Assembly: GCA_017470505.1 (NCBI GenBank)
Contig: JAFUYO010000050.1
Coordinates: forward strand, 1-33,218
Length of the DNA stretch: 33,218 bases
Direction of reading: 5' to 3'
DNA from: Butyrivibrio sp.
GTDB lineage: Bacteria > Bacillota > Clostridia > Lachnospirales > Lachnospiraceae
How positions within the stretch are numbered: the first letter of the stretch is position 1; every line of letters begins with the position of its first letter. Shown here one piece after another: positions 14,810 through 31,720 of the stretch. Position numbers and translations under genes: made by a program. Below the pieces are notes generated by a model, which saw only the letters and a list, made by a program, of their open reading frames with translations, was not told the origin of the DNA and searched no databases.

Positions 14810-15460
14810 ATGACATCGACAATAATGATGGTAATTGAATATACAGGTATCATCGCCTTCGCGATATCGGGTGCCGTGGTTGCCGCCAAGAAGGACATGG
14901 ATATCTTCGGGATCAACCTACTCGCACTCGTGACTGCGACAGGCGGAGGTCTCATCAGGGACCTCATAATAGATGTGACACCTCCCGCAATGTTTGTAAA
15001 TCCTGCCTACACTCTCATCACACTGATAACCGCGAACGTAGCTTTCCTGGTGATGTATCTGCACAAGCCCGTTCCCAAGGGAATCACCCCTGTCTATGAC
15101 TCTCTTCTGTTCTGGCTCGACACACTCGGACTTGCAGCCTTCACTGTGGATGGGGCATTTTCAGGGATTCATCACGGGTACGGCGACAATCTCTTTTTAG
15201 TTGCTTTCGTGGGAATCGTGACCGGAATTGGCGGAGGTATTATCAGGGACATCTTCGCCGACAAGGTGCCGGCGGTATTTATTAAGCACGTCTATGCTAT
15301 AGCCTGCATCGCAGGCTCAGTCGTACTGGTTATTTTGTGGAAGTACACCGGGAGCGAGCTCTTAAGCTCACTCGCCGGCTTTTTTACCATTGTGGTGCTC
15401 CGCTTCATGGCCATGCACTTCAAGTGGAATCTCCCCACCGTGCACCTGCACGACGAGTGA
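14810..15460 (+). CDS. TRIC/UPF0126 (YicG-like) membrane channel protein
   Basis: A 216-residue integral membrane protein with about seven hydrophobic helices built as two inverted halves. Each half carries the family signature, GGGLIRDLI (about residue 46) and GGGIIRDIF (about 143); the first helix contains GIIAFAISGAVVAAKKDMDI, also typical. Prokaryotic TRIC proteins form trimeric cation channels; the physiological substrate of this subfamily is not settled. GGGG lies about 9 nt before the ATG. A 14-codon ORF with its own ribosome binding site ends one base upstream, so translation may be coupled. It converges with aguB across a 315-bp gap filled by a palindromic element. Confidence 0.92.
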   Translation: MTSTIMMVIEYTGIIAFAISGAVVAAKKDMDIFGINLLALVTATGGGLIRDLIIDVTPPAMFVNPAYTLITLITANVAFLVMYLHKPVPKGITPVYDSLLFWLDTLGLAAFTVDGAFSGIHHGYGDNLFLVAFVGIVTGIGGGIIRDIFADKVPAVFIKHVYAIACIAGSVVLVILWKYTGSELLSSLAGFFTIVVLRFMAMHFKWNLPTVHLHDE

Positions 15461-15511
15461 TGCCGCACCGGCCAATCAAATTTCCCCGGCGTAATGACTC
15501 GTTCCAGGGCA

Positions 15512-15746
15512 TTTTTCTCTATTTGAGATTTTATTATTTTTTTGACCCTTTTTACGCTTTTTTCAAGCTGTTTTCAAAGCTGTTTTTCACTATATTGCCT
15601 TTTAAAAAAATTTTGCCCCCTGAAACGCAATTTCAGGGATCAAATTTTTATCGTGATTGCCATATAGAGAAAACGCATGTAAATACATCCCGTCAAAACC
15701 GCCTAAAAGGGTCAAAAATTTATCAGAACCCCTATATAGTGAAAAA
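15512..15746. repeat. Eight-box palindromic element, copy 1 (3' of aguB)
   Basis: Boxes in order: TTTTTCTCTATTTG (15512, degenerate), TTTGACCCTTTT (15541), TTTTTCACTATAT (15583), CCCCCTGAAA (15616), TTTCAGGGATCAAA (15631), ATATAGAGAAAA (15662), AAAAGGGTCAAA (15705), ATATAGTGAAAAA (15734). The second four mirror the first four, so the whole can fold as one long interrupted hairpin. It ends 30 bp past the aguB stop and fills the TRIC-aguB gap. The spacing matches copies 2 and 3 to within 1-2 bp. Confidence 0.8.
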
Positions 15747-15775
15747 CGAGAGCTTGATTCAGATGAGCGCCGAAC

Positions 15776-16666
15776 TCAGCAGCGGCCGGTGATAGGCGCG
15801 TAGCACTCAGGGCGGCGGTCGCGGAAGAGCCCCCACTCAAGGCGGGCTCTTCGGATTCTGTCAAAGTCGTAGGACGCATAGATGATCTCCTCCTGGTCGC
15901 GACTCGCTTTTGCAATCACCTCACCTGTCTCATCAGTCAGAAAACTGTTTCCATAAAATGAAAGAGAGCTCTTCTGGTGACCGTTTTCTTCACAGGGCTC
16001 CACGCACTCAGTTCCGATGCGGTTTGCGGCAGCCACCGGCACGATATTTGCGGCGGCGTGCCCCTGCATCGTCCTCATCCAGTGCCCCGAGCTGTCTACA
16101 TCGAGTATGGGCTCAGACCCAATGGCTGTGGGATAGAGAATAATGTCTGCGCCTAAAAGCGCAAGGCAGCGCGCCGTCTCGGGAAACCACTGATCCCAGC
16201 AGATCCCGACTCCCACTCGACCATACCTTGTCTCAAACACCTTAAAGCCCGTGTCACCCGGAGTAAAATAGAACTTCTCCTGGTAATAGTGATCATCCGG
16301 AATGTGGGTCTTTCTGTAAACTCCAAGACTCTTCCCGTCTGCATCGATCATCACAACAGAATTGTACAGGACATTTCCGTCCCTCTCGTAGATACTGATG
16401 GGCATGACGATGGAGAACTCCCTGCAGACCTCCTTAAATCTCAGGACTGCAGGGTTAACATCTGCAGGGAGCGCATATTCATAGTACTCATAGCGCCTCT
16501 CCTGACAGAAGTACTGCCTCTCGAAAAGCTCCGACAAGAGAACGATATTCGCGCCCTCAGAAGCTGCCCTCCGCACAAGCGCTTCCGCCCTTTCTATGTT
16601 TCCATCCTTTTCGTACCCTTTCGCCCCGCATGCAAACTGCACACACGCAACCCTGACATTACCCAT
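15776..16666 (-). CDS. aguB: N-carbamoylputrescine amidase
   Basis: A 296-residue nitrilase-superfamily enzyme that hydrolyses N-carbamoylputrescine to putrescine, CO2 and ammonia. The catalytic triad is visible: Glu46 (LLSELFERQYFCQ), Lys119 (YRKTHIPDD) and Cys156 (GVGICWDQWFPE). Substrate-family motifs such as GHWMRTMQGHAAANIVPVAA and the normal length support AguB over other nitrilases. The ATG at 16666 has only a distant AAGGGA (13 nt), so the start is likely but not certain. It lies 10.9 kb downstream of aguA on the same strand, split from it by the giant-protein operon. A tandem repeat forms its upstream region and palindromic element copy 1 lies after its stop. Confidence 0.94.
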   Translation of the reverse strand: MGNVRVACVQFACGAKGYEKDGNIERAEALVRRAASEGANIVLLSELFERQYFCQERRYEYYEYALPADVNPAVLRFKEVCREFSIVMPISIYERDGNVLYNSVVMIDADGKSLGVYRKTHIPDDHYYQEKFYFTPGDTGFKVFETRYGRVGVGICWDQWFPETARCLALLGADIILYPTAIGSEPILDVDSSGHWMRTMQGHAAANIVPVAAANRIGTECVEPCEENGHQKSSLSFYGNSFLTDETGEVIAKASRDQEEIIYASYDFDRIRRARLEWGLFRDRRPECYAPITGRC

Positions 16667-16929
16667 TTTCTGGCAAAATCCCTTCTATCTTCACATTTGA
16701 CTTGAATTTTCAGCCGATATCAGCTGTTCCATCCATTTTTTCTGGCAAAAACCTCCATTTCGCCATCTTTGACTGGAAATTCCAGCTGATATCAGCTGTT
16801 CCAACCATTTTTTTCTGGCAAAAACCTCCATTTCGCCATTTCTGACTGGAAATTCCTGCTGATACCAGCGGTTCCACTCATTTTTTTTCTGGCAAAAATC
16901 TCCATTTCGCCATTTTTGACTGGAATTTC
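16664..16929. repeat. 73-bp tandem repeat forming the aguB upstream region
   Basis: About 3.6 head-to-tail units; TGGCAAAA recurs at 16671, 16743, 16816 and 16890 (periods 72, 73, 74). Period changes come from T-run length. Units contain TTTCTGGCAAAAACCTCC, CATTTCGCCAT, TGACTGGAAATTCC and a palindrome, perfect in one unit (CAGCTGATATCAGCTG, 16783-16798) and degenerate in the others. The unit nearest aguB is the most diverged and overlaps its start codon. It spans exactly the gap between the papain-like gene and aguB. Confidence 0.9.
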
Positions 16930-18624
16930 TTATCTTGCGAGTTTCTTCGGAACGTAGATCTGATCGTAGACGACATCGTTTGCGCTATCCTTCATGGCCT
17001 CGATTCCGTCCTTGTGGAGAAGGGTGTCCTGGCTCTTCGCAGCGCCTGCATTCTTGTCACGTTCGTTTACGACAAACTCGTTCTTCTTCCTGTCGTATTT
17101 GAAGGTCTGGAACTCCTCTGCTATCTCCTCTTCATGTCCCTTTATATCAACCAGCCATGTGAGTTCGATATGGAATTGGCTGGTTTCGGCAAAGATCTCA
17201 TCAACAGTACATTTATAGTCCATGACATCATCAGGATCCCCTTTATGAGAAGGTCTGAGTGAGTCCCTGACCTTAAGTATATTGCCATGTAGCTCCTCGA
17301 TCAGAACCCAGTGGTTATCATGGCACATTGCAACAGGTCCGTGCTTTAAGTTAGGACTTAAGATCTCTAAGAATCTCCTCTTAGCCAAATCCAGGCTGCC
17401 GGAAGATCTTATAATCGAAGCTGTTCTGACCGCTGTATTGTCGAGCTTACTGAAAATATAATCTCCGAATACAAAAGGATTTCCTGTTTCGCTTCCTTTA
17501 TGCATTCCCGTTACAACTCTTACTGCTTCATCATAATCTTTCTTTGAAGAAAAGGCTGTATCCTCAAACTTGGGGATAGAAATCTTACTATCCCGCACCA
17601 TTTTCATGCTAGAAACCTTTTTAACTGCCCTGGCGTTCATAAGACCTGACATCGCACATGCCCAGCAGAACAGACCTGTCTGCCTGTCATAAGGTGTATG
17701 CTCTCCATTTTGAGGTGCAACAACATCCTTATCATAGGCAATAGGCGCTCTTTCATTACTGATGTTTTTCGCCTCAAGGGCCTTTACCTTGTCCGCAGCC
17801 TCCTTGTCCGCAATGAGCTTTTTGGGAACGTAGAGCCTTACATTGAAGATATCTTCCTTTCTCGATGAACGGTATCCGTCTTTCTGGAAAACAAGCTCTT
17901 CATCAATGCCCTGCTCCTGTATCAGGGCAGTGACATTTCCATCAGCGTCTAATTTAAGTCCTCCGTAGTTATCTTCAAAGGTGTCTATATTCCTGTCGAC
18001 ATCCTCCATCCAGTAGAGAACCACTCCTGTCTGATCACCACTGGTTCCGAATACCCATTCAAGTTCCTCCGGCTCCAGCCCCTTGGAGTAAGCGTCCATG
18101 TTTCGTTTTGTCAGGAGTCTGTTATCCTGCGTTATACCGTAGATGGTTGCAAAGCTTCCCATTCTCTTTATGACAACAGGTCCCTTTGTCTCTTCAAGCT
18201 TCTTTTGTATGAACGCAAGAGCATTTGCAGTATCCCCGGTTCCGATAAGGTTTGACATATCAGTTGACACCATGACCTTGTTTGGCAGATACTTAAAGGC
18301 CATATCAGCGCAGGCATAAGGACTTCCCTCTTCTTTTCTGGTCTTTCCAAAAAATCTCTTGCCGTTTTCTGACTCATCTTTGGTCTCTAAGATATCCTTT
18401 CCGCCCAGAACAGCCTTACCTGCGTGATAGTTAATAAGTGCTGCAAAAGCGTGAGCCCATGAATCTGTACCGGGGTCCTTCTCTCCTCTGAAGGTATGCG
18501 GGATTCCCTTATCCTTGATCACAAAACTCTTCGACCAGTCAATATTATTGTCTATAAGGACATACGTTTTTCCATTATCGTAGCTTATCATCTTTGGAGC
18601 GAAAGGACTCTCATTTTGATTCAC
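16930..18624 (-). CDS. Tandem papain-like cysteine protease region (3' part of a frameshifted gene)
   Basis: Two papain-like domains. The C-terminal one looks active: DRQTGLFCWACAMSGLMNA (Cys320, Gln315 before it), GPVAMCHDNHWVLIEE (His438) and KVRDSLRP (Asp454). The N-terminal one matches in outline but lacks the residues: GTDSWAHAFAALINYHAG has Ser55 for Cys, and GPVVIKRMGSFATIYGI has Ser157 for His, so it is probably a pseudo-domain. The GTG at 18624 is only the first start codon; it has no ribosome binding site. The same frame runs open upstream to 19050 as a Glu/Lys/Gln-rich linker, so this is best read as the continuation of the gene at 19004-20032. No signal peptide. Substrate unknown; self-processing or effector-type cleavage is inference. 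Confidence 0.75.
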   Translation of the reverse strand: MNQNESPFAPKMISYDNGKTYVLIDNNIDWSKSFVIKDKGIPHTFRGEKDPGTDSWAHAFAALINYHAGKAVLGGKDILETKDESENGKRFFGKTRKEEGSPYACADMAFKYLPNKVMVSTDMSNLIGTGDTANALAFIQKKLEETKGPVVIKRMGSFATIYGITQDNRLLTKRNMDAYSKGLEPEELEWVFGTSGDQTGVVLYWMEDVDRNIDTFEDNYGGLKLDADGNVTALIQEQGIDEELVFQKDGYRSSRKEDIFNVRLYVPKKLIADKEAADKVKALEAKNISNERAPIAYDKDVVAPQNGEHTPYDRQTGLFCWACAMSGLMNARAVKKVSSMKMVRDSKISIPKFEDTAFSSKKDYDEAVRVVTGMHKGSETGNPFVFGDYIFSKLDNTAVRTASIIRSSGSLDLAKRRFLEILSPNLKHGPVAMCHDNHWVLIEELHGNILKVRDSLRPSHKGDPDDVMDYKCTVDEIFAETSQFHIELTWLVDIKGHEEEIAEEFQTFKYDRKKNEFVVNERDKNAGAAKSQDTLLHKDGIEAMKDSANDVVYDQIYVPKKLAR

Positions 18625-19003
18625 ATCTTCTTCGTAATCTTCATCGTATTCTTCATCAGAGTAGGTTTCACTGTCAGCTTCTTCCTGCTCATCCTGATTC
18701 TGCTCATCCTCATTCTGATTACTCAGACTCTGCGTATCCTCAGTCTTTGTTTCGTTCTCTTTCTCGAGTTCCTCTTCGCCCTCTTCGTCATCATCAGGAA
18801 GTCCCTCAAAAGGATTGTTCTCGCGCTTCCTGATTATCTCTTGGTTGTCCTTTTCGATCAGGTTAGCATCAAGTTCTGATGAACTCTTGGCCTTACCCTC
18901 AGTCTCTTCAGCCTTAACCTGTCCGGTAGCTTCCCTGTCCTTGTTATCTTCAGACTTCTTCTGATCTCCAGCCTTTTCTGCTTCCTGATCCTTCTTGTCT
19001 TCT

Positions 19004-19053
19004 TTAACCTGCTCTTTCTTCTCTTCCTGATCCTTCTCTTCGCATTGGCTTCA
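19004..19053 (-). other. Frameshift joining two halves of one gene
   Basis: The upstream ORF stops at 19006-19004. The downstream frame opens right after a TGA at 19053-19051, giving a 47-nt overlap in which the +1 frame reads as the same Lys/Asp/Gln/Glu-rich linker (CEEKDQEEKKEQVKED) that continues for about 140 codons, while the original frame turns into RREGSGREERAG. Removing one base near AAGCCAATG would fuse the ORFs into about 1034 codons. It may be a mutation, an assembly error or, less likely, programmed shifting. Confidence 0.75.
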
Positions 19054-20032
19054 CTACTGAATGAGATGTAGTCATCTCCTGTTTGTCGCCTTCGTACGTC
19101 GCGATGCGCTCCCCCTCACTCTCAAGGCTCTTTCCGAGAGCTTTGATACCGTCCTTGTGGATATGGCGAACAGACCTCATGTCCCTGTAGGCCTCGAGGT
19201 ATTCCTTCAGCTTTTTATCGGTTGTCTTTTCAATCAGTCTCTCAAGCTGATTGTCTGTATAGTTTACATCCTTGGACGCAAGATACTGATAGTAGGGGCT
19301 CTTCATCATGCGCTTCCTCTTGCCGATGTACTCCTCGACCTTCTTTAGTGTCTCCACCTTGGTAAAGAGGTCTGAGAGATTGTCGCCCTTAGGAGCATAG
19401 CCGCCCTCTATCGCATCCTTAAGATGCTTTTCAAAGATCTTGCCGTTCCGGCAGATTTTGAGATTATTCTCAATGTTTTTTACAAATTCCTTGTCGCCGT
19501 CGATCTTGATATCTTTGTAGGAAATCTTCTTAAACTTCGCCATGGCATCAGCAAACTCTTTTTCGGAAAGAGCTCCGACGGGCGTCTCCTTGTCGATGAT
19601 CTCAAAGTCCTCGAGTTTTTTGGCGTAGTCATATCTCTTTATGGCTTCTTTGGCACGCTTTTCCTTGTCGTCATCAGAAAGGTTTTTGTACCTCTGCTTG
19701 TCGAGATTCTCTATCCCTTCCTTTCCAAAGGTCAAAAGCTCAGCTCTCTCAAGTTCGCCGTGGTAATAATTGAGGTTTATATGCGCATTGCGCTTTATCT
19801 GATCCTTTGTGAGGGGCTTTATCTTTTCAGCTCTTTTCCTCAGCTCCAGCCTCTTAATCTCCTCGGGTGTGCGCTTTCTTCCCGATGAAGTATACAGTTT
19901 CGAGTCATGAAAAAGAAGAGTGTTCTTGTTTGCTTCGGCTTCCTTCTTTTTCTCACCTGTCTGCAAAACTTCATTTACTTTATTTTTGTTCTTATCTTCT
20001 ATGTTCTGAAGATCAGTTTTGTTTAAGCCCAT
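19004..20032 (-). CDS. Helical N-terminal part of the frameshifted papain-like protein
   Basis: A 342-residue Lys/Glu-rich, mostly helical protein without signal peptide or membrane segment. The last dozen or so residues are probably off-frame (see 19004-19053). The region around DLFTKVETLKKVEEYIGKRK and KSPYYQYLASKDVNYTDNQL resembles in style the segment ARLAYVEAIDKYIDFKLRCD of the giant neighbour, hinting at a shared helical module. The start is secure: CGGAGG lies 7 nt before the ATG at 20032, and the GNAT gene ends 20 bp upstream, so it is the third gene of the operon. Fused with the downstream frame it would give helical region, charged linker, pseudo-papain domain, papain domain. Confidence 0.7.
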   Translation of the reverse strand: MGLNKTDLQNIEDKNKNKVNEVLQTGEKKKEAEANKNTLLFHDSKLYTSSGRKRTPEEIKRLELRKRAEKIKPLTKDQIKRNAHINLNYYHGELERAELLTFGKEGIENLDKQRYKNLSDDDKEKRAKEAIKRYDYAKKLEDFEIIDKETPVGALSEKEFADAMAKFKKISYKDIKIDGDKEFVKNIENNLKICRNGKIFEKHLKDAIEGGYAPKGDNLSDLFTKVETLKKVEEYIGKRKRMMKSPYYQYLASKDVNYTDNQLERLIEKTTDKKLKEYLEAYRDMRSVRHIHKDGIKALGKSLESEGERIATYEGDKQEMTTSHSVVKPMRREGSGREERAG

Positions 20033-20052
20033 TTCATTCCTCCGGATTTATA

Positions 20053-20874
20053 TTATGCAAAAAGCCTTACAGCGTAATCAATTCCATCAATCCTGTATCT
20101 GTCTGCATCCTCTCCTGTAAGACGCTCGACAAACTCAGAACTGCTGCCTTCCCTGTCCGAAAAGTACAGACAGTTCCCGGCCTTTTCATTCCTGTCGAGT
20201 ACATCTGCCAGAGCTTTGCACAGATCCATTACTCCGCCGACGCCCAGTCCGTTATGGAAAAAAAGCACCTCCAGGTCGCCATCCTCTATCTCTTTGGTGA
20301 GGATAACTCCCCCGATCTCGTCGCGCTCCTTTAAAAGAAAACTGTACTTCTCAGAGTATCCCTCATAAACTTCCTCCGGGATTTCCAGTTTTTCCATGTA
20401 AGCTATCAGCATGTTCTTCGTATTATTATCAGTTGGCGTTGCAACAGGATGTGAGTCGTAGCTGGCTTCCCTTATCCTGTCCATATCCTCCTCATAGATA
20501 AGGTCGGACACCGGCACTCTGTAAAGACCCCTGTCACGGGCAATGAGGAACTGTTTATCTGTCAAAAAATCCCTGACTGCAAGATCGTCTGCCGCAAAAG
20601 TTGTCTCTATACCGTCGAGTCCCATTCCTTCGATGAGCTCCATCGCCTTGTCAAAGAGAAGGCTCCCTGCCCCCTCTGCCCTGTAATCGGGATAGGTGTA
20701 GAGCCAGGATATCTCGAGCATATTGCTCTTTATTGCAAGGGCCATGGCTGCGCAGGGGGAGTTCTCTTCATCGAGAACCCCAAGCGAAGCGTCACTCCCC
20801 TCACCAAGATATCTCTCAGGTATAAGGTCATCAAAAAATTCCTTATTATCATCTGTTATTCTTGTGAGTTCCAT
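20053..20874 (-). CDS. GNAT-family N-acetyltransferase
   Basis: A 273-residue protein with one clear GNAT fold (about residues 1-120). The acetyl-CoA binding segment is DYRAEGAGSLLFDKAMELIE (R-x-x-G-x-G), preceded by the typical strand MLEISWLYTYP. The C-terminal half may be a second, degenerate GNAT-like domain (VLFFHNGLGVGGVMDLCKAL). The ATG has GGAGG 6 nt upstream. It lies 90 bp after the giant gene and 20 bp before the papain-like gene, so all three should be co-transcribed. The acceptor is unknown; the lysine-rich linkers of its neighbours, or polyamines from the flanking pathway, are testable guesses. Confidence 0.85.
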   Translation of the reverse strand: MELTRITDDNKEFFDDLIPERYLGEGSDASLGVLDEENSPCAAMALAIKSNMLEISWLYTYPDYRAEGAGSLLFDKAMELIEGMGLDGIETTFAADDLAVRDFLTDKQFLIARDRGLYRVPVSDLIYEEDMDRIREASYDSHPVATPTDNNTKNMLIAYMEKLEIPEEVYEGYSEKYSFLLKERDEIGGVILTKEIEDGDLEVLFFHNGLGVGGVMDLCKALADVLDRNEKAGNCLYFSDREGSSSEFVERLTGEDADRYRIDGIDYAVRLFA

Positions 20875-20896
20875 CTTTGCCTCCAGAAATCTTCTA

Positions 20897-20959
20897 TTCT
20901 TGAATTATATCTCAGAAATCCGCATATATCGCGGTTTTCTAGGGAACATGATTCAGCAG
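20897..20959. repeat. 63-bp dispersed repeat, copy A
   Basis: This stretch matches 31290-31352 at 52 of 63 positions by eye, with no gaps. On the minus strand it contains a hairpin (GAAAACCGC with GCGGATTTC) followed by TGAGATATAATTCAAG. It lies between the giant gene's stop and the GNAT start, so it may act as a partial terminator, an RNA-processing site, or a promoter (TATAAT) for the two downstream genes. Confidence 0.65.
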
Positions 20960-20963
20960 CTTC

Positions 20964-23900: not shown

Positions 23901-26900
23901 TACGTAAAATCTGGTGAGCCTCCCCCGGTCTACCATATATTCATCTGTATTTCCAAATTTCCAGTCTGACGCTTTCTTAGACTTCAGATACTTATCATAA
24001 GCCCATCTGGTGATCTTTGGCTTTTTGGCTTTAAGATAATCGCACTGCTTATCTACCAGCACATTGTACTCAGTGTCCTCATTTTCACTGAGCTTATATA
24101 CAATCCCATCCTCTGCATAGTAGTAGAACGTCTTTCCGTCAATAACCTTTGTCGTCCCTTTCTTGCCGCACTTTTTGGCTGTTACTCCATCTATAGCCTG
24201 ACCGTATCCTGCTTTCTTCTTTTTATCGGTAAGAGGTACATACTTGATCCTGTCTTCATAAACAGACTCTACGCCCTCCTTGTAGTCGTCAAGCACCTCT
24301 GCATAGGATACCTGTGTGTTCTGAAGCTGCCTAAGTTCATAGAGCAGGCCGGGCAAAGCAGGATAATATGCATCATAAACCTCTTTGGCGCCTTTCTTAT
24401 TCGCCTCGTTGACAACGATAGTTTTCCCACCATTAAAGTCTACGTTATGCTTGAGCTTTACGTAAGAGCCAAATACCTGGAATATAACAGAATGTGCAAA
24501 AGCATACTTATTGTAGAATTTATTCTGTTTGTCAAATTCATTAAACGGCTCCCATGCTCTTCTGAGACCATCCCAAGAAAGAAACTTTGCATTCAGTTCA
24601 TTCCATTTCTCCATCCCGTGCTCAAGAGTCCTCTCAAACCAGGCCTCAAGCTGCTTGTTATACGCCTCTGTCTCCTCTTTACTAAGTACTGCCTTCTCAG
24701 GAAATGGAGGCATTTCATATCCGTCAAATAAATGATCCATCTCTTCGGATATCATCTCATTGATGGTCTTTTCATCTACCTTGTTTTCACCCTCTTTTCC
24801 CTTCTCTTCCCAGGCTCTGAGCCACTTCATGTTCCAGTTGAAATTCTTCATATTTTCAGGCTCATCTATGGGTTTATATGCTCTGTCAAACTTGACAGGA
24901 CGCATCACTGTAGCTGCAATTCTATCGACAGAATCAACTGTAAAGCTTGCCTTTCTGAACTTATCACATGCTTTGTCAATTGCCTCCTTGTACGCAGGGC
25001 ATGCATTGTATGCACCTATTGTGTTACCATGCATCTCATAAGCTTTAAGCGCAACCAAAGTAGGCTTCTCCGGAGACTGTAAGAGTTTTTCAATTTCTCC
25101 TTCCTTGAAGTCCCCAAGAAGACCTGGCTCAACCTTTTCGAGCATACCTCCGCCAATCTTGTTCTGCACAAGATTCTCTTCCTTGGGCTGCTCAACCTTG
25201 ATCTCGTTCTGGTTTTTGTTCTCTTCTTTGTTTTCTTCTTTGATTTCGTTCTGATTCTTGTTTTCTTCTTTATTCTCTTCCTTAGGCTGCTCTACGTTCT
25301 TATTCTCTTCCTTGTTCTCTTCCTGATTTACAGGCTCTTCTTCGCCATCATCGAACAGATCTCCCTTGAGATCTTCAGCAATCTTGTTGAGGTTATCCTC
25401 CTGAGCGTTATTCTCATCCTGATTATTCTGCTGAGCATCCTTGTTCTCTTCCTTAGGCTGCTCCTCAACGTTTTTGTTCTCTGCCTTGTTTTCTTCTTTG
25501 TTCTCTGCCTTTTTCTGCTCGTTGTTATTAATTTCGGCATTAACTAAAACGATACGGTTCTCCTCAACCTTAGGCTGTTCCTGTGCAACCTTGTTCTCTT
25601 CTGCCTTCTGCTCTCCGGCCTTGTTCTGTTTTACAGCCTCGTCCTTCTTATCTTCCTTCTTCAGAAGATTCTCCATACCTCCAATAACATTGCCGGCTTT
25701 TTCAATAGCTTCTGCATTCTTGGCAATGATTTCTTTCTTGGCAGCATTCTTTTTGGCGTCAGCTTTTTTGCCGGCAGCTTTCTTTCCGGCAGCTTTCTTC
25801 TTTGCGTCTGCCTTTTCACCGTCAGCTTCCTTCTTGGCACTCGCCTTTTTAACCTGCTTTTCCTCGGACACATCCACATTGATGATGTCATTTCCATAGA
25901 GGTCGACAGGTCCTATATTGTGGAGCAGCTCGCCCTCTGCGAGCAGAATATCGCTTCCATCCAGAACACTTGTGTACTTTTTGAATGCCTTCTCGATATT
26001 CGTATCCTCGGCTTCCTGCTGATGAGTCCTTCGGCCATTTTGTGTAACTCCAAAGGCATCCTTGCGCTTAACCGCTCCGGTCTTATCTCTGTAAAACTTG
26101 AAATTTGGATCACTCTCAATAACAAACCTTCCGCGCTTTTGTGAAAACTCAATGTTGTGGTCGCAGCGAAGTTTGAAATCTATATACTTATCGATGGCTT
26201 CAACATAGGCAAGCCTCGCCCTTATCTCCTTGTTCTCCCTGAAATAATCCGCAACGGATCCCTCTTTTTTCACCATCTCCTTGTAGTACGGAAGCGCTCT
26301 CTTCGTGAGGTCATAGTAGTCCCTTAAGTGCTCCATTACATAGTGTCTTGCGCCATCATGCAAAAGATCTTTTGCCGAAGGAAGGGGAATGCTCTCAAAC
26401 CTCTTTACAGCCTCCATCTCCATGGCTGCCTTCTCATCGCCATTGGCAGCCTTATATGCCTTGTTCCACTCATGGTTCTCCTCCTCAGACTTCATGACAG
26501 CCGCGCCATTCATGTCGCGCAGTACAGCCTTTTCAGGCCATTTGCTGTCTCTGAGCTGATACTGGTAGTATTCCAGATTCGCAAAAATCCTGGTATCGGT
26601 TTCACTAAACAGCGGGCTCTCCTCCCTGTACTCCTTTTTGAGAGTTGAATAAGTCGTGCTGTTAAGCTTATTGCCTTCCCTCCAGGCATCAATGGATCTG
26701 GGCACGTTTGCAATGATGTCTTTTTTGGCGCTCTTGATCTTGTCCTTTATCCCTGAGAGCTTTGAATTCAGTTTTCTTTCCAGGCGCTTGTTCCCACTTG
26801 CAATCTCATCATCGATGAAATGCTCGAGCTGGTCCTGCAGAATAAGGGCGCAGGAGAGCCTCGCCCTTGCCTTTAAGTACGCCTCGTTCTTCTTGCTCTT

Positions 26901-27404
26901 ACTCTTATATTCAGCGGCGTTGAGCATGGCATTGAGGCGGTATTCCATTATCGTTTCCCTGTGGAGATACTGAGTGTAGGAATCCTGATCCTGGTCATTC
27001 GCAAACTGTGCCATCTTTGAGCTCATGAGGTTGTAATTGTCCTCTGCTTTTCTGGCGCTTCCTTTACGCTTTCTGGCATTATGGTTTGTGTAAAGAGCCG
27101 CATACTGCTCCGTCAGATGCACCTTAGCCTGACCCTCCTTGAGGTCGTGGTAGTGCATTGCTTTTTGGGCGACACGATCCGAATCCCTGAAATAGTACTT
27201 AGTGCGCATGGCAAAATCCGAATCCTTGAGCTTTTGGTTGAAGTGCTCTTCAAGCTGGTTGGCGTCGTAGTCAAACTCCCTGTGGTCCAAAAGACCCGGC
27301 AGCGCCTTGTTCCTGACTGCGTTTCTGAAGGCATCCTGATTCTGCCCCTGCTCTTTGTACTGCTCAAAATTTGATTTTGTTTTCTTAAACTCAAAATCTG
27401 CCAT
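20964..27404 (-). CDS. Giant 2146-residue modular repeat protein, function unknown
   Basis: No signal peptide, membrane segment or catalytic motif is visible. Helical N-terminus (1-290); Lys/Ala-rich (510-570), Glu/Asn/Lys-rich (590-750) and Lys-rich (1380-1510) linkers carrying short peptide repeats (EENKEENKNQNEIK; ESNKEENKNSINVINDKK). Between them one module of about 170 residues recurs up to five times: clearly at 820-990 and 1905-2075 (TVMRPVKFD, IDEPEN, WNxKWLRA, DEKTINEMI, WDGLR), more diverged at about 295-430, 1157-1330 and 1613-1775 (always xxHEWN or FEWN then a Leu/Phe-rich helix). A second module (AIDGVTAKKCGKKG, then YYYAEDGIVYKLS) occurs at 1068-1120 and 1518-1560, each ahead of a first-type module. 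GGAG lies 8 nt before the ATG. It leads the operon with the GNAT and papain-like genes. Confidence 0.9.
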   Translation of the reverse strand: MADFEFKKTKSNFEQYKEQGQNQDAFRNAVRNKALPGLLDHREFDYDANQLEEHFNQKLKDSDFAMRTKYYFRDSDRVAQKAMHYHDLKEGQAKVHLTEQYAALYTNHNARKRKGSARKAEDNYNLMSSKMAQFANDQDQDSYTQYLHRETIMEYRLNAMLNAAEYKSKSKKNEAYLKARARLSCALILQDQLEHFIDDEIASGNKRLERKLNSKLSGIKDKIKSAKKDIIANVPRSIDAWREGNKLNSTTYSTLKKEYREESPLFSETDTRIFANLEYYQYQLRDSKWPEKAVLRDMNGAAVMKSEEENHEWNKAYKAANGDEKAAMEMEAVKRFESIPLPSAKDLLHDGARHYVMEHLRDYYDLTKRALPYYKEMVKKEGSVADYFRENKEIRARLAYVEAIDKYIDFKLRCDHNIEFSQKRGRFVIESDPNFKFYRDKTGAVKRKDAFGVTQNGRRTHQQEAEDTNIEKAFKKYTSVLDGSDILLAEGELLHNIGPVDLYGNDIINVDVSEEKQVKKASAKKEADGEKADAKKKAAGKKAAGKKADAKKNAAKKEIIAKNAEAIEKAGNVIGGMENLLKKEDKKDEAVKQNKAGEQKAEENKVAQEQPKVEENRIVLVNAEINNNEQKKAENKEENKAENKNVEEQPKEENKDAQQNNQDENNAQEDNLNKIAEDLKGDLFDDGEEEPVNQEENKEENKNVEQPKEENKEENKNQNEIKEENKEENKNQNEIKVEQPKEENLVQNKIGGGMLEKVEPGLLGDFKEGEIEKLLQSPEKPTLVALKAYEMHGNTIGAYNACPAYKEAIDKACDKFRKASFTVDSVDRIAATVMRPVKFDRAYKPIDEPENMKNFNWNMKWLRAWEEKGKEGENKVDEKTINEMISEEMDHLFDGYEMPPFPEKAVLSKEETEAYNKQLEAWFERTLEHGMEKWNELNAKFLSWDGLRRAWEPFNEFDKQNKFYNKYAFAHSVIFQVFGSYVKLKHNVDFNGGKTIVVNEANKKGAKEVYDAYYPALPGLLYELRQLQNTQVSYAEVLDDYKEGVESVYEDRIKYVPLTDKKKKAGYGQAIDGVTAKKCGKKGTTKVIDGKTFYYYAEDGIVYKLSENEDTEYNVLVDKQCDYLKAKKPKITRWAYDKYLKSKKASDWKFGNTDEYMVDRGRLTRFYVFPLKSFNTDGNGKPLTNKDREKFEWNKEYLKAVTGNEKDEKKKEFMTKSTISKSLEVLDSIQIPEELLNFDDPTAELDRKTEQKVINFVEALVDKMPGSIWDEIAKTHTSKEFSEQEVPWAAEFMKNNKRFDFLCDFGPQLKAVIDAVIVQKYGIRIDFNPDMDIVEESNARMDMAKEIGSEGSIISFLIFLSQHKNEIKAANRGKVLVRRPVAKETEDNNADKDVKKDTKKVAAKKATKETAKKDTKKDKKKEVKEEVKKESKKATKKDSKKAAKKENNKNSINVTNDKKESNKEENKNAANVINEVKESNKEENKNSINVINDKKTSEKKEDAKAKAADEKIRRAARGVAVDGITAEMCGKKGYHPFMGRYYYYAEDDVVYKLSSAENKEYSSAKKKEPRLTLWSYNLWRNYKKNAAFLRHPEYMKLYENTDSKKMHEIAGAAASSIDRVLTGAMKFVEFDKKGNPLPEYAKAHEWNLEFLRGFDKNKMSDSETQEKLDKMLADHIPHIFDDIMTYPIPDIFFNYPEGTEDEKVLDEVIRTCEMLVDRYGMKIFEANMRSLSLENVAKLKPVVDAYWKDNPKFQMLFDYSSNLYNLMVQIAQVKYGVNIAMGAKQIVNKQEGLSEKDKQNRDKRDTELVKILANSLLVFVGKYKAAKNTEYKREFTLTQKDIDNRLYIDNKTREKMRKEAPDVTDEAINYVKAFRDACVIKFYPEYAALMPKWPKGLYDKINYAREQMDRLAFTVMRPVKFDKYFKVIDEPENLANHEWNLKWLRAFVDENADNEKGTYKIDEKTINEMIEEEVGNIENLVNKMEMPPIPTKENPTDAELLEFQPRIAEWYRRVMTNSPDVFHQLGIKALGWDGLRKLSPAFKEWDQQNKYLFSIGDLCTNISGNSMYFDRVFFRINKEGDSIEKILETKEQRDANVAIYEEIQKNKKTIEVLYKACYNFGKERANKDKYPTFKQIVESMKKEEKK

Positions 27405-27455
27405 GGGTTTCTCTCCTTTGTTAAAGTCATTTTATATGCATTTTTATACAATTAT

Positions 27456-27484
27456 TTTATACGAAAACCGTAAGCTTTTGGCAA
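27456..27484 (-). promoter_or_regulatory. Sigma-70-type promoter of the giant-protein operon
   Basis: On the minus strand TTGCCA (27484-27479), a 17-nt spacer and TATAAA (27461-27456), about 50 nt before the ATG at 27404. It lies in the 123-bp gap after aguA, so the operon need not depend on the polyamine transcript. A direct repeat AAGCTTTTGG flanks the -35 box. Confidence 0.6.
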
Positions 27485-27527
27485 AAAAGCTTTTGGATAT
27501 TGACCTTCGCATCATTGTGCTGCAAGT

Positions 27528-28856
27528 TTATGCGTATCTACCCAGCGGAATCTGCTGCGTTATGCAGTGGATGTTCCCGCCGCCTAAGAGTATTGCTCTC
27601 GCGTCTATTCCTATGATTTCCCTGTCCGGCATAAGCTTTTTTAATATGGAAAGAGCTCTTGCATCGCTCTCACTGTTATCTCCCCCAAACTGCGGAACGA
27701 GCGCCGCGCCGTTTATGAAATAAAAATTGACGTAGCTTGCCGCAAGCCGCTCGCCTTCGCTTCGCTGATCCTCACCCTCCTCAAATTCGTAATTGGCAAG
27801 GTCCTTACCAGTGACAAGAACCGGATGGTCTGGTATAGGGAGCTTGTGAACCTTTATCCTGCGGCCCTTCGCATCAGTCGCGCTCTCAAAAAACTCGAGG
27901 TCTGCGCGTGATAGCTCATACTGAGGATCGCCCGTATTGTCGGTCCAGGCGAGGACCACCTCAGCTGGCCCTATGAATGCGCAGACATTGTCGACGTGCT
28001 CATTGGTCTCATCGCCATATATTCCTCTCGGGAGCCAGAGAACTTTCTCTGCCCCGAGGTAGGTTTTGAGGTTCTCCTCAATCTCTGCCTTTGTAAGATT
28101 TGGGTTTCGTCCTCTGCTGAGAAGACAGCTCTCCGTCACCATGACTGTCCCCTCGCCGTCACAGTTTATGCTGCCGCCCTCGAGGATGAAGGGAAGGATA
28201 CTCGTAGCCGGCGGCTGATCTGGGGTGCTATCGTTATCTGTCGCAGTATTGGTGGAGATGGCGGTGCTATCGTTGTCCGGTGCAGCGTTGGTGGAGATGG
28301 CGGTGCAATCGTTGTCTGCCGCGGCGTTGATGGAGATGGCGGTGCAATCGTTGTCCTCCGCGGGCTGTGGCCTTGCGAGCGCCTCGTAGTAGTCAATTCC
28401 CATCATGTTGCAGAAGGTCGCCGCCACCTTGTCGTCCCGCTCCCAGCTCTTGTAGAGTCCGTCATACTCCCCGCCCCACGCATTGAAGCCGAATTTCACG
28501 GCGCGGAGGCTTTTAGGATAATGTGATGCTGTCACGAAAATGGGTCCGACATCTCTCGCCCAGGCATCATCCGACTCAATCTGCAGGATGTGGATTCTGC
28601 TTTGTTGTATGTCCGGAAGCCCTGCGATCAGCTCTTTTGCCTCATCCATGTGAGCAGCATCAACCAGCAGATAGAGATTTTCGCGCCTTGCAATCTCTCT
28701 GAAGATCTCAGCGAACGCACTAAGCGCAGCCGAGCGCTCTTTTCCCCAGCTGCCGGGACGCGTGGGATAGATCATGATTGTTCCGTCGTGTGCCCAAAAC
28801 TCCGCAGGCATCATATATCCATCTTTCTTGGGTGTTGAAGTTATGATTTCTGACAA
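27528..28856 (-). CDS. aguA: Agmatine deiminase with a repeat insertion
   Basis: A 442-residue enzyme converting agmatine to N-carbamoylputrescine and ammonia. Family motifs: [61 protein letters not shown] and the catalytic Cys431 ([14 protein letters not shown]). The start is a TTG at 28856 with AAGGAG 5 nt upstream; the first in-frame ATG would cut into the conserved N-terminus. Unusually, residues about 167-218 are four tandem copies of a 13-residue unit ([13 protein letters not shown]) with no counterpart in typical enzymes of about 370 residues. It lies downstream of nspC on the same strand, with palindromic element copy 2 between them. Confidence 0.94.
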
Positions 28857-28919
28857 TATTGCTCCTTATAATGTGGGATTTGTGCCCCTTCTTACCTTGT
28901 ATACTTTTCTTACAGCACA

Positions 28920-29151
28920 TTTTTCTGTATATGAACGTTTCATTATTTTTTTGACCCTTTTCACCTCTAAAAAGGCTTTCTCAAAAGCTTGTTTTTCACT
29001 ATATGATGTTTCATTATTTTTTTGACCCTTGAAACCATATTTTAGGGGTCAAATTTCAAACAAAATCAGCTATAGTGAAATCAGGCTGCGAAAACAGGTA
29101 AAAAAACAGCAAAAAAGGGTCAAATTTTAAACGAACACCCTTTATAGTGAA
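28920..29151. repeat. Eight-box palindromic element, copy 2 (3' of nspC)
   Basis: The clearest copy, with boxes TTTTTCTGTATATG (28920), TTTGACCCTTTT (28950), TTTTTCACTATAT (28992), TTTGACCCTTGAAA (29021), TTTAGGGGTCAAA (29041), CTATAGTGAAA (29070), AAAAGGGTCAAA (29113) and TTATAGTGAA (29142). It ends 58 bp past the nspC stop and begins 63 bp upstream of the aguA start codon. It occupies most of the 353-bp gap, in which I see no gene. Confidence 0.85.
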
Positions 29152-29209
29152 CTCGCATCGCCATTAACGACTCCTGCCAGTGCGAAACTATAGAAGATTA
29201 TTTTTCCTC

Positions 29210-30544
29210 TTACAATCTCGACTTGAAATCGCTGTAGTCAAATGTCTTCAGAACTTCGACCTCTCCGTCGAGGTGCCTTATATCTATATCCGGCAGAGGC
29301 ATTCCGTTAAAGGTATTGTTCTTTACAAAGCTGTAGATTGCCATGTCTTCAAAATAGAGCTTGTCGCCGATCTTTTTTTCCTCGGCGAAGCTGTAATCTC
29401 CAATCACATCACCTGCAAGGCAGGTTCTGGATGATAGCCTGTAGGTGAAATTCATCTCGCCCGGCTGCTCCGAATCCATGAGCGGAGGTCTGTAAGGCAT
29501 CTCGATGACATCCGGCATGTGGCAGGATGCAGAGGTGTCAAGGATGAGAACAGGCATCCTGTCGGTCTGCACCACATCCATTACCGTAGTTACGAGGTAT
29601 CCCGCATTAAGCGCAATCGCTTCACCGGGCTCAAGATAAACCTCGATTCCGTACTTCTCCCTGATGTAGCGGATCAGTCTCACAAGGGCATCCCTGTCAT
29701 AGTCCTCTCTTGTTATGTGATGGCCGCCGCCTAAGTTGATCCACCTGATTTTTCCCTCAAAGCCTGTGAGTCCGAACTCGGCGTTCAGGTCGTCGGTATC
29801 ATCTTCAATTCCATCGAGGCTCTCAATCTCATCAAAATCATCGCTGTACTCGCTGCCGGCGCTCTCCTCATAGCCCATGTCCCTGAACACGAAGCTGTCA
29901 TAGTCATCCTCAATAACAGGATTCGGAAAGAATCTGGAAAAAACCTGCTCAACCTTCAGAAAAGTCTCCTCGAGCGGCTCAAAGCCCTGCTCGCACAGGT
30001 TGTGAATATGGATTCCGTCAACACCATCGGGAAGCATGTCCGGCAGGTGCTCATTTCTGATGCCAAGGCGCGAGCCCGGGGCACAGGGATCATAGATCTC
30101 ATGGGCGTCCTCTGCGCTGATCTCAGGATTCACTCTGATGCCAACGGAAATCTTGCCATCGGCTGCATATTTTTCCCAGACGGGTCTGTGGTGCTCAAGC
30201 TGGGTGAGCGAATTGAATACGATGTGATCACAGATCTGACAGATCTCTTCCATCTCATCATCTTTGTAGGCGGGCTCGTAAACGTGATTCTCCCTCTCGA
30301 CTCCGCCATAGGCTATCGCCTTGAATTCTTCATGTGCAAGCCTCGCCTCATAAATCCCGGAAGCCGTCGCTCCCGCAAGGTATTCTGCGATTATCGGATA
30401 GGTCTGGTACGCGGAGTAAGCCTTCTGCGCCAGAAGGATCTTCGCCCCGGACTTGTCCTGTACATCCCTGAGTATTTCCAGATTATCCCGCAGTTTCTTT
30501 TCATCGATAACATATGCAGGCGTCTGTACTTCACTGATTTTCAT
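29210..30544 (-). CDS. nspC: Carboxynorspermidine/carboxyspermidine decarboxylase
   Basis: A 444-residue PLP-dependent alanine-racemase-fold enzyme that removes CO2 from carboxy(nor)spermidine to give spermidine or norspermidine. The PLP lysine is Lys41 (ILLAQKAYSAYQTYP). Other family landmarks are GSRLGIRNEHLP, IHIHNLCEQ, NLGGGHHITREDYD, VYLEPGEAIALNAGYL and DTSASCHMPDVIEMP. Residues about 207-262 are an acidic Asp/Glu/Ser-rich insertion between the HNLCEQ and NLGGGHH segments, explaining why it is about 60 residues longer than usual. AGAGGA lies 8 nt before the ATG. It is on the same strand as the synthase and aguA. Carboxyspermidine is the more likely substrate because putrescine is made locally, but sequence alone does not decide. 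Confidence 0.94.
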   Translation of the reverse strand: MKISEVQTPAYVIDEKKLRDNLEILRDVQDKSGAKILLAQKAYSAYQTYPIIAEYLAGATASGIYEARLAHEEFKAIAYGGVERENHVYEPAYKDDEMEEICQICDHIVFNSLTQLEHHRPVWEKYAADGKISVGIRVNPEISAEDAHEIYDPCAPGSRLGIRNEHLPDMLPDGVDGIHIHNLCEQGFEPLEETFLKVEQVFSRFFPNPVIEDDYDSFVFRDMGYEESAGSEYSDDFDEIESLDGIEDDTDDLNAEFGLTGFEGKIRWINLGGGHHITREDYDRDALVRLIRYIREKYGIEVYLEPGEAIALNAGYLVTTVMDVVQTDRMPVLILDTSASCHMPDVIEMPYRPPLMDSEQPGEMNFTYRLSSRTCLAGDVIGDYSFAEEKKIGDKLYFEDMAIYSFVKNNTFNGMPLPDIDIRHLDGEVEVLKTFDYSDFKSRL

Positions 30545-30608
30545 GTTAGTTGTCCTCTATCCTTAGTTTATTGTGCATGACATTTTGCTGTTTGGTCTGC
30601 AATGTGTC

Positions 30609-30636
30609 ATTATAAGCTTGGTTTTATGCCTGGCAA
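30609..30636 (-). promoter_or_regulatory. Sigma-70-type promoter of nspC
   Basis: On the minus strand TTGCCA (30636-30631), a 16-nt spacer and a perfect TATAAT (30614-30609), about 65 nt before the nspC ATG. The rest of the 292-bp gap to 30836 shows no gene. Confidence 0.6.
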
Positions 30637-30836
30637 TATTGCAAGGTCAATTGTGCTACTGCTTGTTTTTTGATTACAAGTCATTGTTTACAAATGCAGT
30701 CATGTATGCTATATTTAACCTCTGATCTAATTGTCTGAAATATCTGTACATTCTTAATGAATCATTATTTTCACACATTAGAACAAATCACAATCTAAAA
30801 ACACATACATAATTATTTTAAGATTAAAGGAGGATT

Positions 30837-31282
30837 ATGTCTATTAAGAATCTATTAACTGAGCGTGAAGAACGCATCACTAAGGAGCTGAAAAAGCTTG
30901 AAAACAAACTGAATAAACTCCCCGAAGGACTGCTTGTATGTAATTACAGAAACGGAAAAGTGCGGTGGTATGAGGAGAGAACTGAGAACGGAAAGCGCCA
31001 AAGGCACTATCTGTCAAAAAGAACTGACAGTTCAAGAATTGATGACCTCGTTCATAAGACTTATTTCACCTACAAAAAACGTGAGCTCGAAGCAGAGCTT
31101 GTTGGCATTGGGGACTGCTTCATAAAAACAGTTACGTCCAGAGTTCTCTTTATAAGACGTCTCTCTATATTTCTGCCGGCTATCTTCCGGGAGATTCTTT
31201 TATCATCACGTCTGAAACTGATACCCATCCACTAAATTACGAACGTGTCAGAGAAATTGCAACCATGTACTTTCTAGATTAG
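30837..31282 (+). pseudogene. Decayed nuclease-like hypothetical gene, internal deletion and frameshift
   Basis: The start is perfect (AAAGGAGG, 5 nt, ATG) and the first 80 codons look real (MSIKNLLTEREERITKELKK to LVHKTYFTYKKRELEAEL). The same frame then becomes improbable and stops at 31235. From about 31095 the +1 frame instead reads a sensible C-terminus (KNSYVQSSLYKTSLYISAGY, then ITSETDTHPLNYERVREIAT, then MYFLD) to a TAG at 31280-31282. From memory, Lachnospiraceae carry intact relatives of roughly 300 residues with this N-terminus and C-terminus and a predicted restriction-nuclease-like core between; that core is missing here. It lies on the opposite strand between the polyamine genes nspC and the synthase. 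Confidence 0.7.
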
Positions 31283-31430
31283 CTATGACTTCTTGAATTA
31301 TATTTCAGAAATCCGCATGTACTTCGGATTTCGTGAGAACATGATTAGGCAGGCAAACAGGCCCTTCGGCGAAGCCGACTTAAATGGCCTGTTTGCAGAC
31401 ATCTTGAATGTTTCATTCAAGATGTCATAG
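31283..31430. repeat. 148-bp inverted-repeat element containing the 63-bp repeat, copy B
   Basis: The ends CTATGACTTCTTGAAT (31283-31298) and ATTCAAGATGTCATAG (31415-31430) are inverted repeats with one mismatch in 16. Inside are copy B of the 63-bp repeat (31290-31352), a perfect 11-bp inverted repeat GCAAACAGGCC/GGCCTGTTTGC (31353-31363/31386-31396) enclosing CTTCGGCGAAG, and a 13-bp hairpin (31398-31410/31414-31426) followed by TAGTTTTT that could end plus-strand transcription. It starts right after the pseudogene stop. I see no target duplication. Confidence 0.6.
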
Positions 31431-31478
31431 TTTTTCGCTGTTGATTGATCTGGTATTAAACATTGGCGTTTTTGGGGA

Positions 31479-31684
31479 AAGTTCACTATAGGCAGGCTCC
31501 GTTGAAACTTTGACCCTTTTGCTGTGTTTTTCGAGTAACTTTTTGAGACGATTTTCATTATATCGCTTTTCACGAAAATTTTGATCCTTGAAATGCGTTT
31601 TTAAGGGTCAAAAAAATAATAATTTTTCTAAATAGTGAAAAGTGCTCATAAAAAATAGTGATTTTTCATGGCAAAAGGGTCAAA
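31479..31684. repeat. Eight-box palindromic element, copy 3 (3' of the synthase gene)
   Basis: Seven of eight boxes: TTCACTATA (31482), TTTGACCCTTTT (31509), TTTTCATTATAT (31552), TTTGATCCTTGAAA (31580), TTTAAGGGTCAAA (31600), AATAGTGAAAA (31631), AAAAGGGTCAAA (31673). The eighth is not recognisable near 31701. An extra AATAGTGA lies at 31654. It ends 37 bp past the synthase stop. With the 148-bp element it fills the 438-bp gap, which has no convincing gene. Confidence 0.8.
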
Positions 31685-31720
31685 ATTTCAACACTCACGC
31701 CACACAAGGCATGCTCTCTC

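What the first reader, a model, noticed from the sequence alone, without database searches (positions are those of the whole stretch)
15512..31701. Three-copy palindromic box element placed after the stop codons of polyamine genes
Copies at 15512-15746, 28920-29151 and 31479-31684 share the order b-a-b-a-a'-b'-a'-b', with a close to TTTGACCC and b close to TTCACTATA. Relative to the first TTTGACCC, the TTCACTATA box starts at +42 in all three, the G of the central TGAAA lies at +81 in all three, and the mirrored boxes lie within 1 bp of each other (+97/98, +125/126, +167/168). The sequence between boxes has diverged strongly. Each copy sits 20-60 bp past the stop of aguB, nspC or the synthase, and I saw none elsewhere in the window. 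Fixed spacing with drifting sequence suggests selection on a long hairpin or on an array of protein-binding sites, which could stabilise, terminate or co-regulate polyamine mRNAs. A recently spread non-autonomous repeat is the main alternative.
Basis: partly seen in the sequence, partly recalled or inferred. Interest (0 to 1): 0.75.

Follow-up and report, generated by a model that had tools for sequence, protein, structure and literature searches.

The report
Nuclease-linked palindromic repeat arrays
Three long mirror-image DNA elements between polyamine genes of a Butyrivibrio-like bacterium belong to a genome-wide repeat family that appears tied to its own DNA-cutting enzyme gene, a possible independent counterpart of the REP-repeat systems of other bacteria.

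Summary
The three copies are real and their spacing is as constant as claimed, but nothing ties them to polyamine genes. The window is from a Butyrivibrio-like MAG whose genome holds at least 27 copies of this type (3 in the window) and 3 of a second type, beside unrelated genes. Each is a palindrome of four bipartite sites (word b, then word a). Words are 81-95% identical between copies, long spacers 36-37% (shuffled 26-27%), and spacer arms hardly pair. Other Butyrivibrio genomes carry the same layout with different words; with few exceptions all copies of a word change together, which points to a trans-acting reader. The likely reader is a PD-(D/E)XK nuclease of about 260 aa, found in 69 of 79 genus genomes. 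Palindromic arrays lie just downstream of 14 of 31 of its genes against 0 of 120 other genes, and word sharing follows protein relatedness. The window holds a broken copy of this gene near the third array. Best reading: a REPIN-RAYT-like nuclease-plus-repeat system with an unrelated enzyme. Linkage is well supported; movement by the nuclease is inferred.

The parts
15509..15745 (.). Array copy E1 (type T1), between an aguB-like gene (- strand, stop at 15776) and a convergent gene (14810-15460 +, Pfam Gly_transporter)
28917..29153 (.). Array copy E2 (type T1), between the nspC-like gene (stop at 29210, -) and the agmatine deiminase gene; box starts about b1 28922, a1 28950, b2 28994, a2 29021, a2' 29046, b2' 29071, a1' 29117, b1' 29143
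31476..31713 (.). Array copy E3 (type T1), 7 bp from the stop of the carboxynorspermidine-synthase-like gene; outer right b box lost
30837..31085 (+). N-terminal piece (profile residues 1-83) of a broken gene of the PD-(D/E)XK nuclease family; part of ORF 30837-31235
31103..31273 (+). C-terminal piece (profile residues 201-257) of the same broken gene; no match to the middle part was found
31398..31426 (+). Terminator-like hairpin after the broken gene, inside a separate dispersed repeat of about 135 bp (about 31284-31430)
29210..30544 (-). nspC-like decarboxylase; context gene
31721..32983 (-). Saccharopine-dehydrogenase-family (carboxynorspermidine synthase-like) gene; context
27528..28856 (-). 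Agmatine deiminase (Pfam PAD_porph) gene; context
15776..16666 (-). Carbon-nitrogen hydrolase (aguB-like) gene; context

Best explanation
The element is one member of a lineage-specific population of palindromic arrays, each made of four copies of a bipartite site (b, about 26 bp, a; two sites per arm, arms mirrored), that serve as the cognate repeats of a family of PD-(D/E)XK nuclease genes. Shown: the layout, the conserved words and spacing, dispersion, different word sets with the same layout in other species, and arrays next to nuclease genes. Inferred, well supported: the nuclease, probably through its N-terminal part, reads the words of its own array. Inferred, weaker: cutting at or near an array lets the array be copied or moved to new intergenic places, where copies are tolerated mostly just after stop codons; solo arrays are thus non-autonomous, like REPINs beside a RAYT. 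In this genome the nuclease gene seen near E3 is broken, so the T1 arrays may now be orphans unless an intact partner sits in the unassembled part or among the other family genes.
For: (1) At least 27 T1 copies in one genome with constant spacing; words 81-95% versus long spacers 36-37% pairwise identity over 19 copies. (2) Same layout, other words: G011 has 4 arrays with one word set and 5 solo arrays with another; G046, G005, G052, G071, G086 and G001 have further ones; the mixed model R2 finds arrays in 10 of 79 genus genomes. Word changes hit the copies of a word together, with few exceptions. (3) Linkage: arrays on both sides of a nuclease ORF in G084 and G086; one after it and one further upstream, beyond another ORF, in G046; arrays about 65-110 bp after a nuclease gene in G011, G071 and G005. 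Systematic score: 13 of 31 downstream, 3 of 32 upstream, 0 of 29 and 0 of 30 segments 700 bp away; repeat with 3' flanks of other genes as control: 14 of 31 versus 0 of 120, and 10 of 31 versus 0 of 120 with three or more separate arms. (4) In G011 two nucleases 62% identical to each other each adjoin an array with their own words, and the solo arrays carry one or the other set. (5) Word sharing correlates with protein identity, r=0.28, 0 of 5000 permutations. (6) Window: nuclease gene remnants end 200 bp before E3. (7) The C-terminal half matches PADLOC PDC-S68 at profile positions 1090-1216 of 1221 (E 6e-28) and HEAT_CxxC_PDDEXK (3e-4); R-S-K, E156, D186 and E201-H are invariant in 31 sequences. 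(8) Insertion: relatives have the polyamine genes close together where G000 has arrays; on C5 a T1 array abuts and truncates a T2 array.
Against: 17-18 of 31 nuclease genes have no downstream array by my score, and at least 2 that pass (L363, L339) look like other hairpins rather than word arrays. The loci tested are the best-scoring family matches plus three of G000, not a random sample, and one with a stop codon inside (L351) was dropped. Three intact-looking family genes of G000 carry no T1 words nearby. No nuclease remnant was found within the up to 4 kb held around the arrays outside the window. No target duplication in 12 copies. No biochemical or population evidence of movement. The word-protein correlation could partly reflect shared ancestry of flanking DNA, although pairs at 80% identity or more were dropped.
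Confidence: 0.68

Rival explanations
1. Solo arrays are leftovers of full array-nuclease-array elements after recombination between the two flanking arrays (like solo LTRs); arrays themselves do not move.
For: G084 and G086 genes have arrays on both sides; the window keeps gene remnants near E3.
Against: Only the window, of the 25 sequences searched that hold the 30 arrays, keeps nuclease remnants; 27 T1 arrays against one remnant would need many clean deletions.
Confidence: 0.12
2. The arrays are host-used protein binding sites (chromosome organisation or repair) and the nuclease is a domesticated partner; spread is slow and selection acts on each copy in place.
For: Words have 0-5 mismatches in 52 letters in 19 of 24 copies while the closest copies share only 61% of spacer letters at the median, more word conservation than simple ageing suggests; spacing almost without indels.
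Against: The window positions are not shared by the relatives compared; species use different word sets and copy numbers; outer boxes are often lost (b1 recognisable in 15 and b1' in 16 of 24).
Confidence: 0.12
3. One reading: a long RNA hairpin after stop codons that terminates or stabilises mRNAs.
For: RNA folding of E2 beats shuffles (z -4.8 on + strand, -3.3 on the strand in line with nspC); 21 of 30 copies lie within 60 bp of a stop codon; pairing in boxes holds across types; spacer arms are slightly more complementary than shuffled (0.41 versus 0.36; inner spacers 0.53 versus 0.46).
Against: That excess is small and leaves very large internal loops; a1=a2 and b1=b2 within a type is not needed for a hairpin; no array scores as a terminator in 28800-31800; E2 and E3 sit between genes that form one run in relatives. 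A side effect on mRNA remains possible.
Confidence: 0.05
4. An ordinary MITE of a DDE insertion sequence; linkage to the nuclease is incidental.
For: Size, inverted repeats and intergenic dispersion fit a MITE.
Against: No target duplication; no such element at the 10 stretches around isolated T1 words that I checked; nuclease linkage is far above control.
Confidence: 0.03

Closest known systems
REPIN-RAYT systems (REP doublets with REP-associated tyrosine transposases)
   Same: An enzyme gene with cognate palindromic repeats in its flanks, dispersed extragenic solo repeats, more than one repeat type per genome each near its own enzyme gene, long-lived populations (REPIN side: passages of PMC3116915; abstract of PMC8049555)
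   Different: The enzyme matches PD-(D/E)XK nucleases, not HUH/Y1 transposases; the repeat is about 235 bp with four bipartite sites, not a doublet of short REPs; tens rather than hundreds of copies (REP numbers recalled and from the abstract of PMC2817692 in a search listing); Firmicutes host
ERIC, Yersinia palindromic and similar intergenic repeats / MITEs (recalled; ERIC and NEMIS named in the PMC3116915 passages)
   Same: Palindromic, intergenic, roughly 100-250 bp
   Different: No nuclease partner that I know of; here internal direct repeats and words that change in concert
BIMEs (REP clusters; search-listing abstract of PMC2817692 and recall)
   Same: Alternating inverted words with regular spacing; some nuclease loci here have long alternating arrays (G078, G000 C17)
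   Different: Different words, different enzyme
Homing endonuclease genes of PD-(D/E)XK type (recalled)
   Same: Small nuclease gene, possibly selfish
   Different: No array of repeated sites and no solo repeat population known to me for them

Membership tests
REPIN-RAYT | Enzyme is a RAYT (Y1/HUH) transposase | tested here: not met
   Linked proteins match PD-(D/E)XK nuclease profiles and no transposase family; that no RAYT reads these arrays was not tested
REPIN-RAYT | Cognate palindromic repeats flank the enzyme gene | tested here: met
   14 of 31 downstream versus 0 of 120 other genes; 3 of 32 upstream, 0 of 59 far segments; both sides in G084 and G086
REPIN-RAYT | Dispersed extragenic solo copies with the same words | tested here: met
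   at least 27 T1 copies in G000; two word sets in G011
REPIN-RAYT | Excision or transposition intermediates seen | not testable with these tools
   needs read data
MITE of a DDE transposon | Target site duplication | tested here: not met
   12 T1 copies, no excess of flank matches; old duplications could have decayed
MITE of a DDE transposon | Parent element with the same ends and a DDE transposase | tested here: inconclusive
   10 stretches around isolated T1 words showed no such element; no whole-genome scan for transposases was run
Intrinsic terminator | GC-rich stem followed by a T run | tested here: not met
   one search lists no site inside E2 or E3; E1 was not scanned
Rfam families | Match at gathering score | tested here: not met
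   0 matches in the window
PD-(D/E)XK nuclease superfamily (linked protein) | Homologous domain and conserved acidic residues | tested here: met
   PADLOC PDC-S68 C-terminus E 6e-28, HEAT_CxxC_PDDEXK 3e-4; invariant E156, D186, E201 in 31 sequences; weaker PHROG match to a Holliday junction resolvase, 0.004; no structure or activity test

The most novel reading that the evidence does not exclude
A previously undescribed class of nuclease-repeat elements: a PD-(D/E)XK nuclease that by itself recognises a fixed-geometry palindromic array of bipartite words and spreads it, with word specificity diverging together with the enzyme so that several mutually blind nuclease-array pairs coexist in one genome.
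Probability: 0.4. Interest if true: 0.9.

Novelty: new variant of a known kind. Interest (0 to 1): 0.76.

Why it matters
It would show that the 'enzyme plus dispersed cognate palindrome' life style known from REPINs and RAYTs arose again with an unrelated nuclease fold. It gives a natural series of enzyme-word pairs (69 of 79 genus genomes carry the nuclease) from which DNA recognition rules could be learned, and it makes testable whether a PD-(D/E)XK nuclease can mobilise DNA without a DDE, HUH or recombinase partner.

Tried and rejected
Orientation bias: covariance-model scores suggested that copies point one way relative to their gene, but I had put all training copies in + contig orientation, so this is an artefact and is not claimed.

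Parent element with separate left and right ends: isolated T1 words on C26, C27 and other contigs were checked in 10 stretches; none showed the b-a-b-a ends. An exact pattern of mine with a wrong gap range found nothing.

Layout scan of 921 kb of other fetched loci, by self-similarity alone, gave nothing clearly above its shuffles (best 42 versus 38). That scan also missed the T2 copy in L085 and the partial copy in L087.

Viral contigs: 36 stretches matched a two-word pattern; of the 22 I read none showed the palindromic array by eye, and most look like coding repeats. Phage records: 3 short partial DNA matches; plasmids none. By protein: 3 phage and 11 plasmid records, partial, mostly the nuclease domain, several under helicase or ATPase annotations. 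Viral protein scans: none with the two-sequence query, two partial relatives with the larger alignment, one inside a 1206-aa helicase-like ORF.

A block after the gene remnant (about 31284-31430) first looked like part of the element, but similar blocks occur elsewhere (L363, L070, L072, L084), so I treat it as a separate repeat.

Same insertion site in G084 and the window (synthase-nspC gap): tempting as one inherited insertion, but the C-terminal remnant is no closer to the G084 protein (45%) than to that of G046 (46%); left open.

G046 first looked like array-gene-array; another ORF lies between its left array and the nuclease, so it is not counted as flanked on both sides.

Literature: nine answered searches listed no description of these arrays or of a nuclease tied to them; only open-licence PMC papers are held and only the top of each list is shown. 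Seen of papers: PMC3116915 passages, PMC8049555 outline and abstract; others only as search listings.
Full report
Where it is. The best public relatives of the window's nspC protein are Butyrivibrio records (80 best kept), so the window probably comes from a Butyrivibrio-like MAG, 2.75 Mb in 56 contigs, 84% complete.

Observation. The three copies are as described, with small corrections of offsets. The order is b1 a1 b2 a2 | a2' b2' a1' b1' with commonest offsets -28, -1, +44, +70, +96, +121, +167 and +193 (words taken one letter longer to the left for b and a). Among 24 T1 copies that I anchored (27 known; C22:19810, C34 and C11, truncated, left out), recognisable boxes lie within 2 bp of these places (sought within 3 bp). 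Pairwise identity over 19 copies is 0.81-0.95 in six boxes (outer b boxes not included), 0.36-0.37 in the two long spacers (shuffled 0.26-0.27) and 0.44-0.48 in the two short ones (shuffled 0.30-0.35). Spacer arms are only slightly more complementary than shuffled: 0.41 against 0.36 (long), 0.53 against 0.46 (short). What is held is a set of words at fixed distances rather than a continuous hairpin.

Genome-wide. A covariance model and BLAST find at least 27 copies of this type (T1) and, with a second query, 3 copies of a second type (T2) whose words differ but whose spacing is the same where complete enough to tell. Of these 30, 21 lie within 60 bp of a predicted stop codon and 2 between divergent ORFs; gene calls were simple ORFs and no random-intergenic control was run. 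Pfam matched 14 of 20 neighbours tested, without a common function: ClpC-like, LuxS, chemotaxis receptor, SpoIIE-domain, histidine kinase, TelA, Mrr-type nuclease, ABC permease and others. I saw polyamine genes only beside the window copies; 20 neighbours of the other copies were tested, not every one.

Insertion. In 32 of 33 relative loci compared (some the same contig fetched twice) synthase and nspC lie within about 180 bp; in L137 they are 3.8 kb apart. nspC and agmatine deiminase are within about 110 bp where both were seen; aguB and the convergent gene are within 25 bp in 3 of 4 loci and 1 kb apart in L126. In the window these gaps are 1176, 353 and 315 bp with an array in each. On contig C5 a T1 array abuts and truncates a T2 array.

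Age. The best spacer match of a T1 copy to any other is 61% at the median (null 38%); 6 of 24 copies have a partner at 70% or more; 19 of 24 copies have 0-5 mismatches in 52 word letters, the five truncated ones 6-12. This looks like an old, slowly growing population whose words are conserved more than the spacers.

Other species. Among 40 relatives (24 of the genus) the T1 model gave two weak places. Reading one (G011) showed the same layout with other words; four such arrays exist there, with a1-a2 distance 72 and spacers without evident similarity. A model made from T1, T2 and these (R2) found arrays in 10 of 79 genus genomes at E up to 0.05, with strict filters. I read 22 further places. 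Words differ by species, and by subfamily within G011, yet in the complete arrays the boxes keep the same offsets from the centre (about 16, 41, 88-90 and 114-117). Several weaker places (G014, G084, G086 C295, G001, some of G046) show only part of the layout. Between types changes hit the copies of a word together, with few exceptions: for example G to T at the same word position in a1, a1', a2 and a2' between T1 and the G011 type. A hairpin would tie a1 to a1' but not a1 to a2; a trans-acting reader ties all. Within T1 alone the alignment gives only modest covariation (score 0.104 against 0.077 shuffled; pairs with a change on both sides 6 against 4.5, reached by 107 of 500 shuffles).

The linked gene. 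In G084 two arrays flank a 259-aa ORF directly; in G046 one array follows a homologous ORF (47% identical) and another lies upstream beyond a further ORF. No convincing Pfam, NCBIfam or PDB relative was found, but the C-terminal half matches PADLOC candidate-defence profiles at their C-terminal end (PDC-S68, E 6e-28) and a PD-(D/E)XK profile (3e-4), and plasmid proteins annotated as helicases or ATPases carry a similar domain. In 31 family members R-S-K, E156, E173, D186-F, E201-H and G204 are among the invariant residues. I call it a PD-(D/E)XK nuclease from these matches; the motif assignment is recalled. That the N-terminus binds DNA is inference.

Distribution and linkage. The family profile matches 69 of 79 genus genomes at E up to 1e-6, 1-9 places each. 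For 32 gene loci (the 30 best-scoring fetched minus L351, which has a stop inside, plus three of G000) I scored palindromic arrays in 360 bp on either side: 13 of 31 downstream and 3 of 32 upstream pass (score at least 12 and above all 15 shuffles); segments 700 bp away pass in 0 of 29 and 0 of 30. Because gene ends carry terminators, I repeated it with 3' flanks of other Butyrivibrio genes: 14 of 31 against 0 of 120, and 10 of 31 against 0 of 120 when three or more separate arms are asked for. Of those that pass, L339 has a single arm and L363 looks like another repeat. Adjacent arrays carry gene-specific words, some as long alternating series. Over 30 of 31 genes with enriched words and 432 pairs below 80% protein identity, word sharing correlates with protein identity (r=0.28; 0 of 5000 permutations reach it). 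In G011 two nucleases (62% identical) adjoin arrays with different words, and the solo arrays there use one or the other set.

Back to the window. G000 has three intact-looking family genes on other contigs, without T1 words nearby, a C-terminal fragment on C36, and two pieces in the window: 30837-31085 (profile residues 1-83) and 31103-31273 (201-257). The window gene is broken: nothing matches the middle part, where most of the conserved nuclease residues lie, and 30837-31235 reads as a 132-aa ORF. Array E3 begins about 200 bp after it; I saw no T1 words on its other side. So the window holds the remains of a nuclease locus near an array, in the synthase-nspC gap; G084 has array-gene-array in the same gap. 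Whether this is one inherited insertion or two is open.

Mechanism. Shown: layout, dispersion, word concert, linkage. Inferred: the nuclease reads the words (linkage and word-protein correlation), and nuclease action spreads arrays (insertions, a truncated neighbour array, related copies). No target duplication was found in 12 copies, so a DDE-type insertion is not indicated. Gene 3' ends are probably where such insertions do least harm; effects on mRNA are possible but secondary.

Known systems. The way of life resembles that of REPINs and RAYTs (PMC3116915 passages; PMC8049555 abstract), but the enzyme belongs to another superfamily and the repeat has another build, so it is not a member. 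Nine literature searches listed no earlier description in the open-licence library searched.

Noticed in passing
window 31284-31430: A separate dispersed repeat of about 135 bp with a terminator-like hairpin; relatives at 74-87% identity in other G000 loci (L363, L070, L072, L084) and twice around a nuclease gene in G086 (L336).
   Followed up: partly
window 16930-27404: About 10 kb including a 2146-aa ORF without Pfam match at 1e-8 (20964-27404) lies between agmatine deiminase and aguB, which are close together in relatives.
   Followed up: no
L078 (C53:7837-8069) and L079 (C25:85142-85375): Two nearly identical truncated T1 copies lie inside a duplicated segment with GAATTGTAAC/GTTACAATTC at its ends, perhaps another mobile element that carried an array.
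   Followed up: no
L334 and L336, upstream of the nuclease genes: The leader before both nuclease genes holds a shared short palindromic stretch (GGATATTCATCCAA), possibly a regulatory site.
   Followed up: no
L360 (G078), downstream of the nuclease gene: A long alternating series of TTTGTACCC and its mirror at roughly 26-28-bp steps, much longer than the four-site array.
   Followed up: no
L319 (G046 C18:637659) and L328 (G001 C16:247159): The same solo array, by eye similar along its whole length including spacers, in two congeners: probably a vertically inherited solo array.
   Followed up: no
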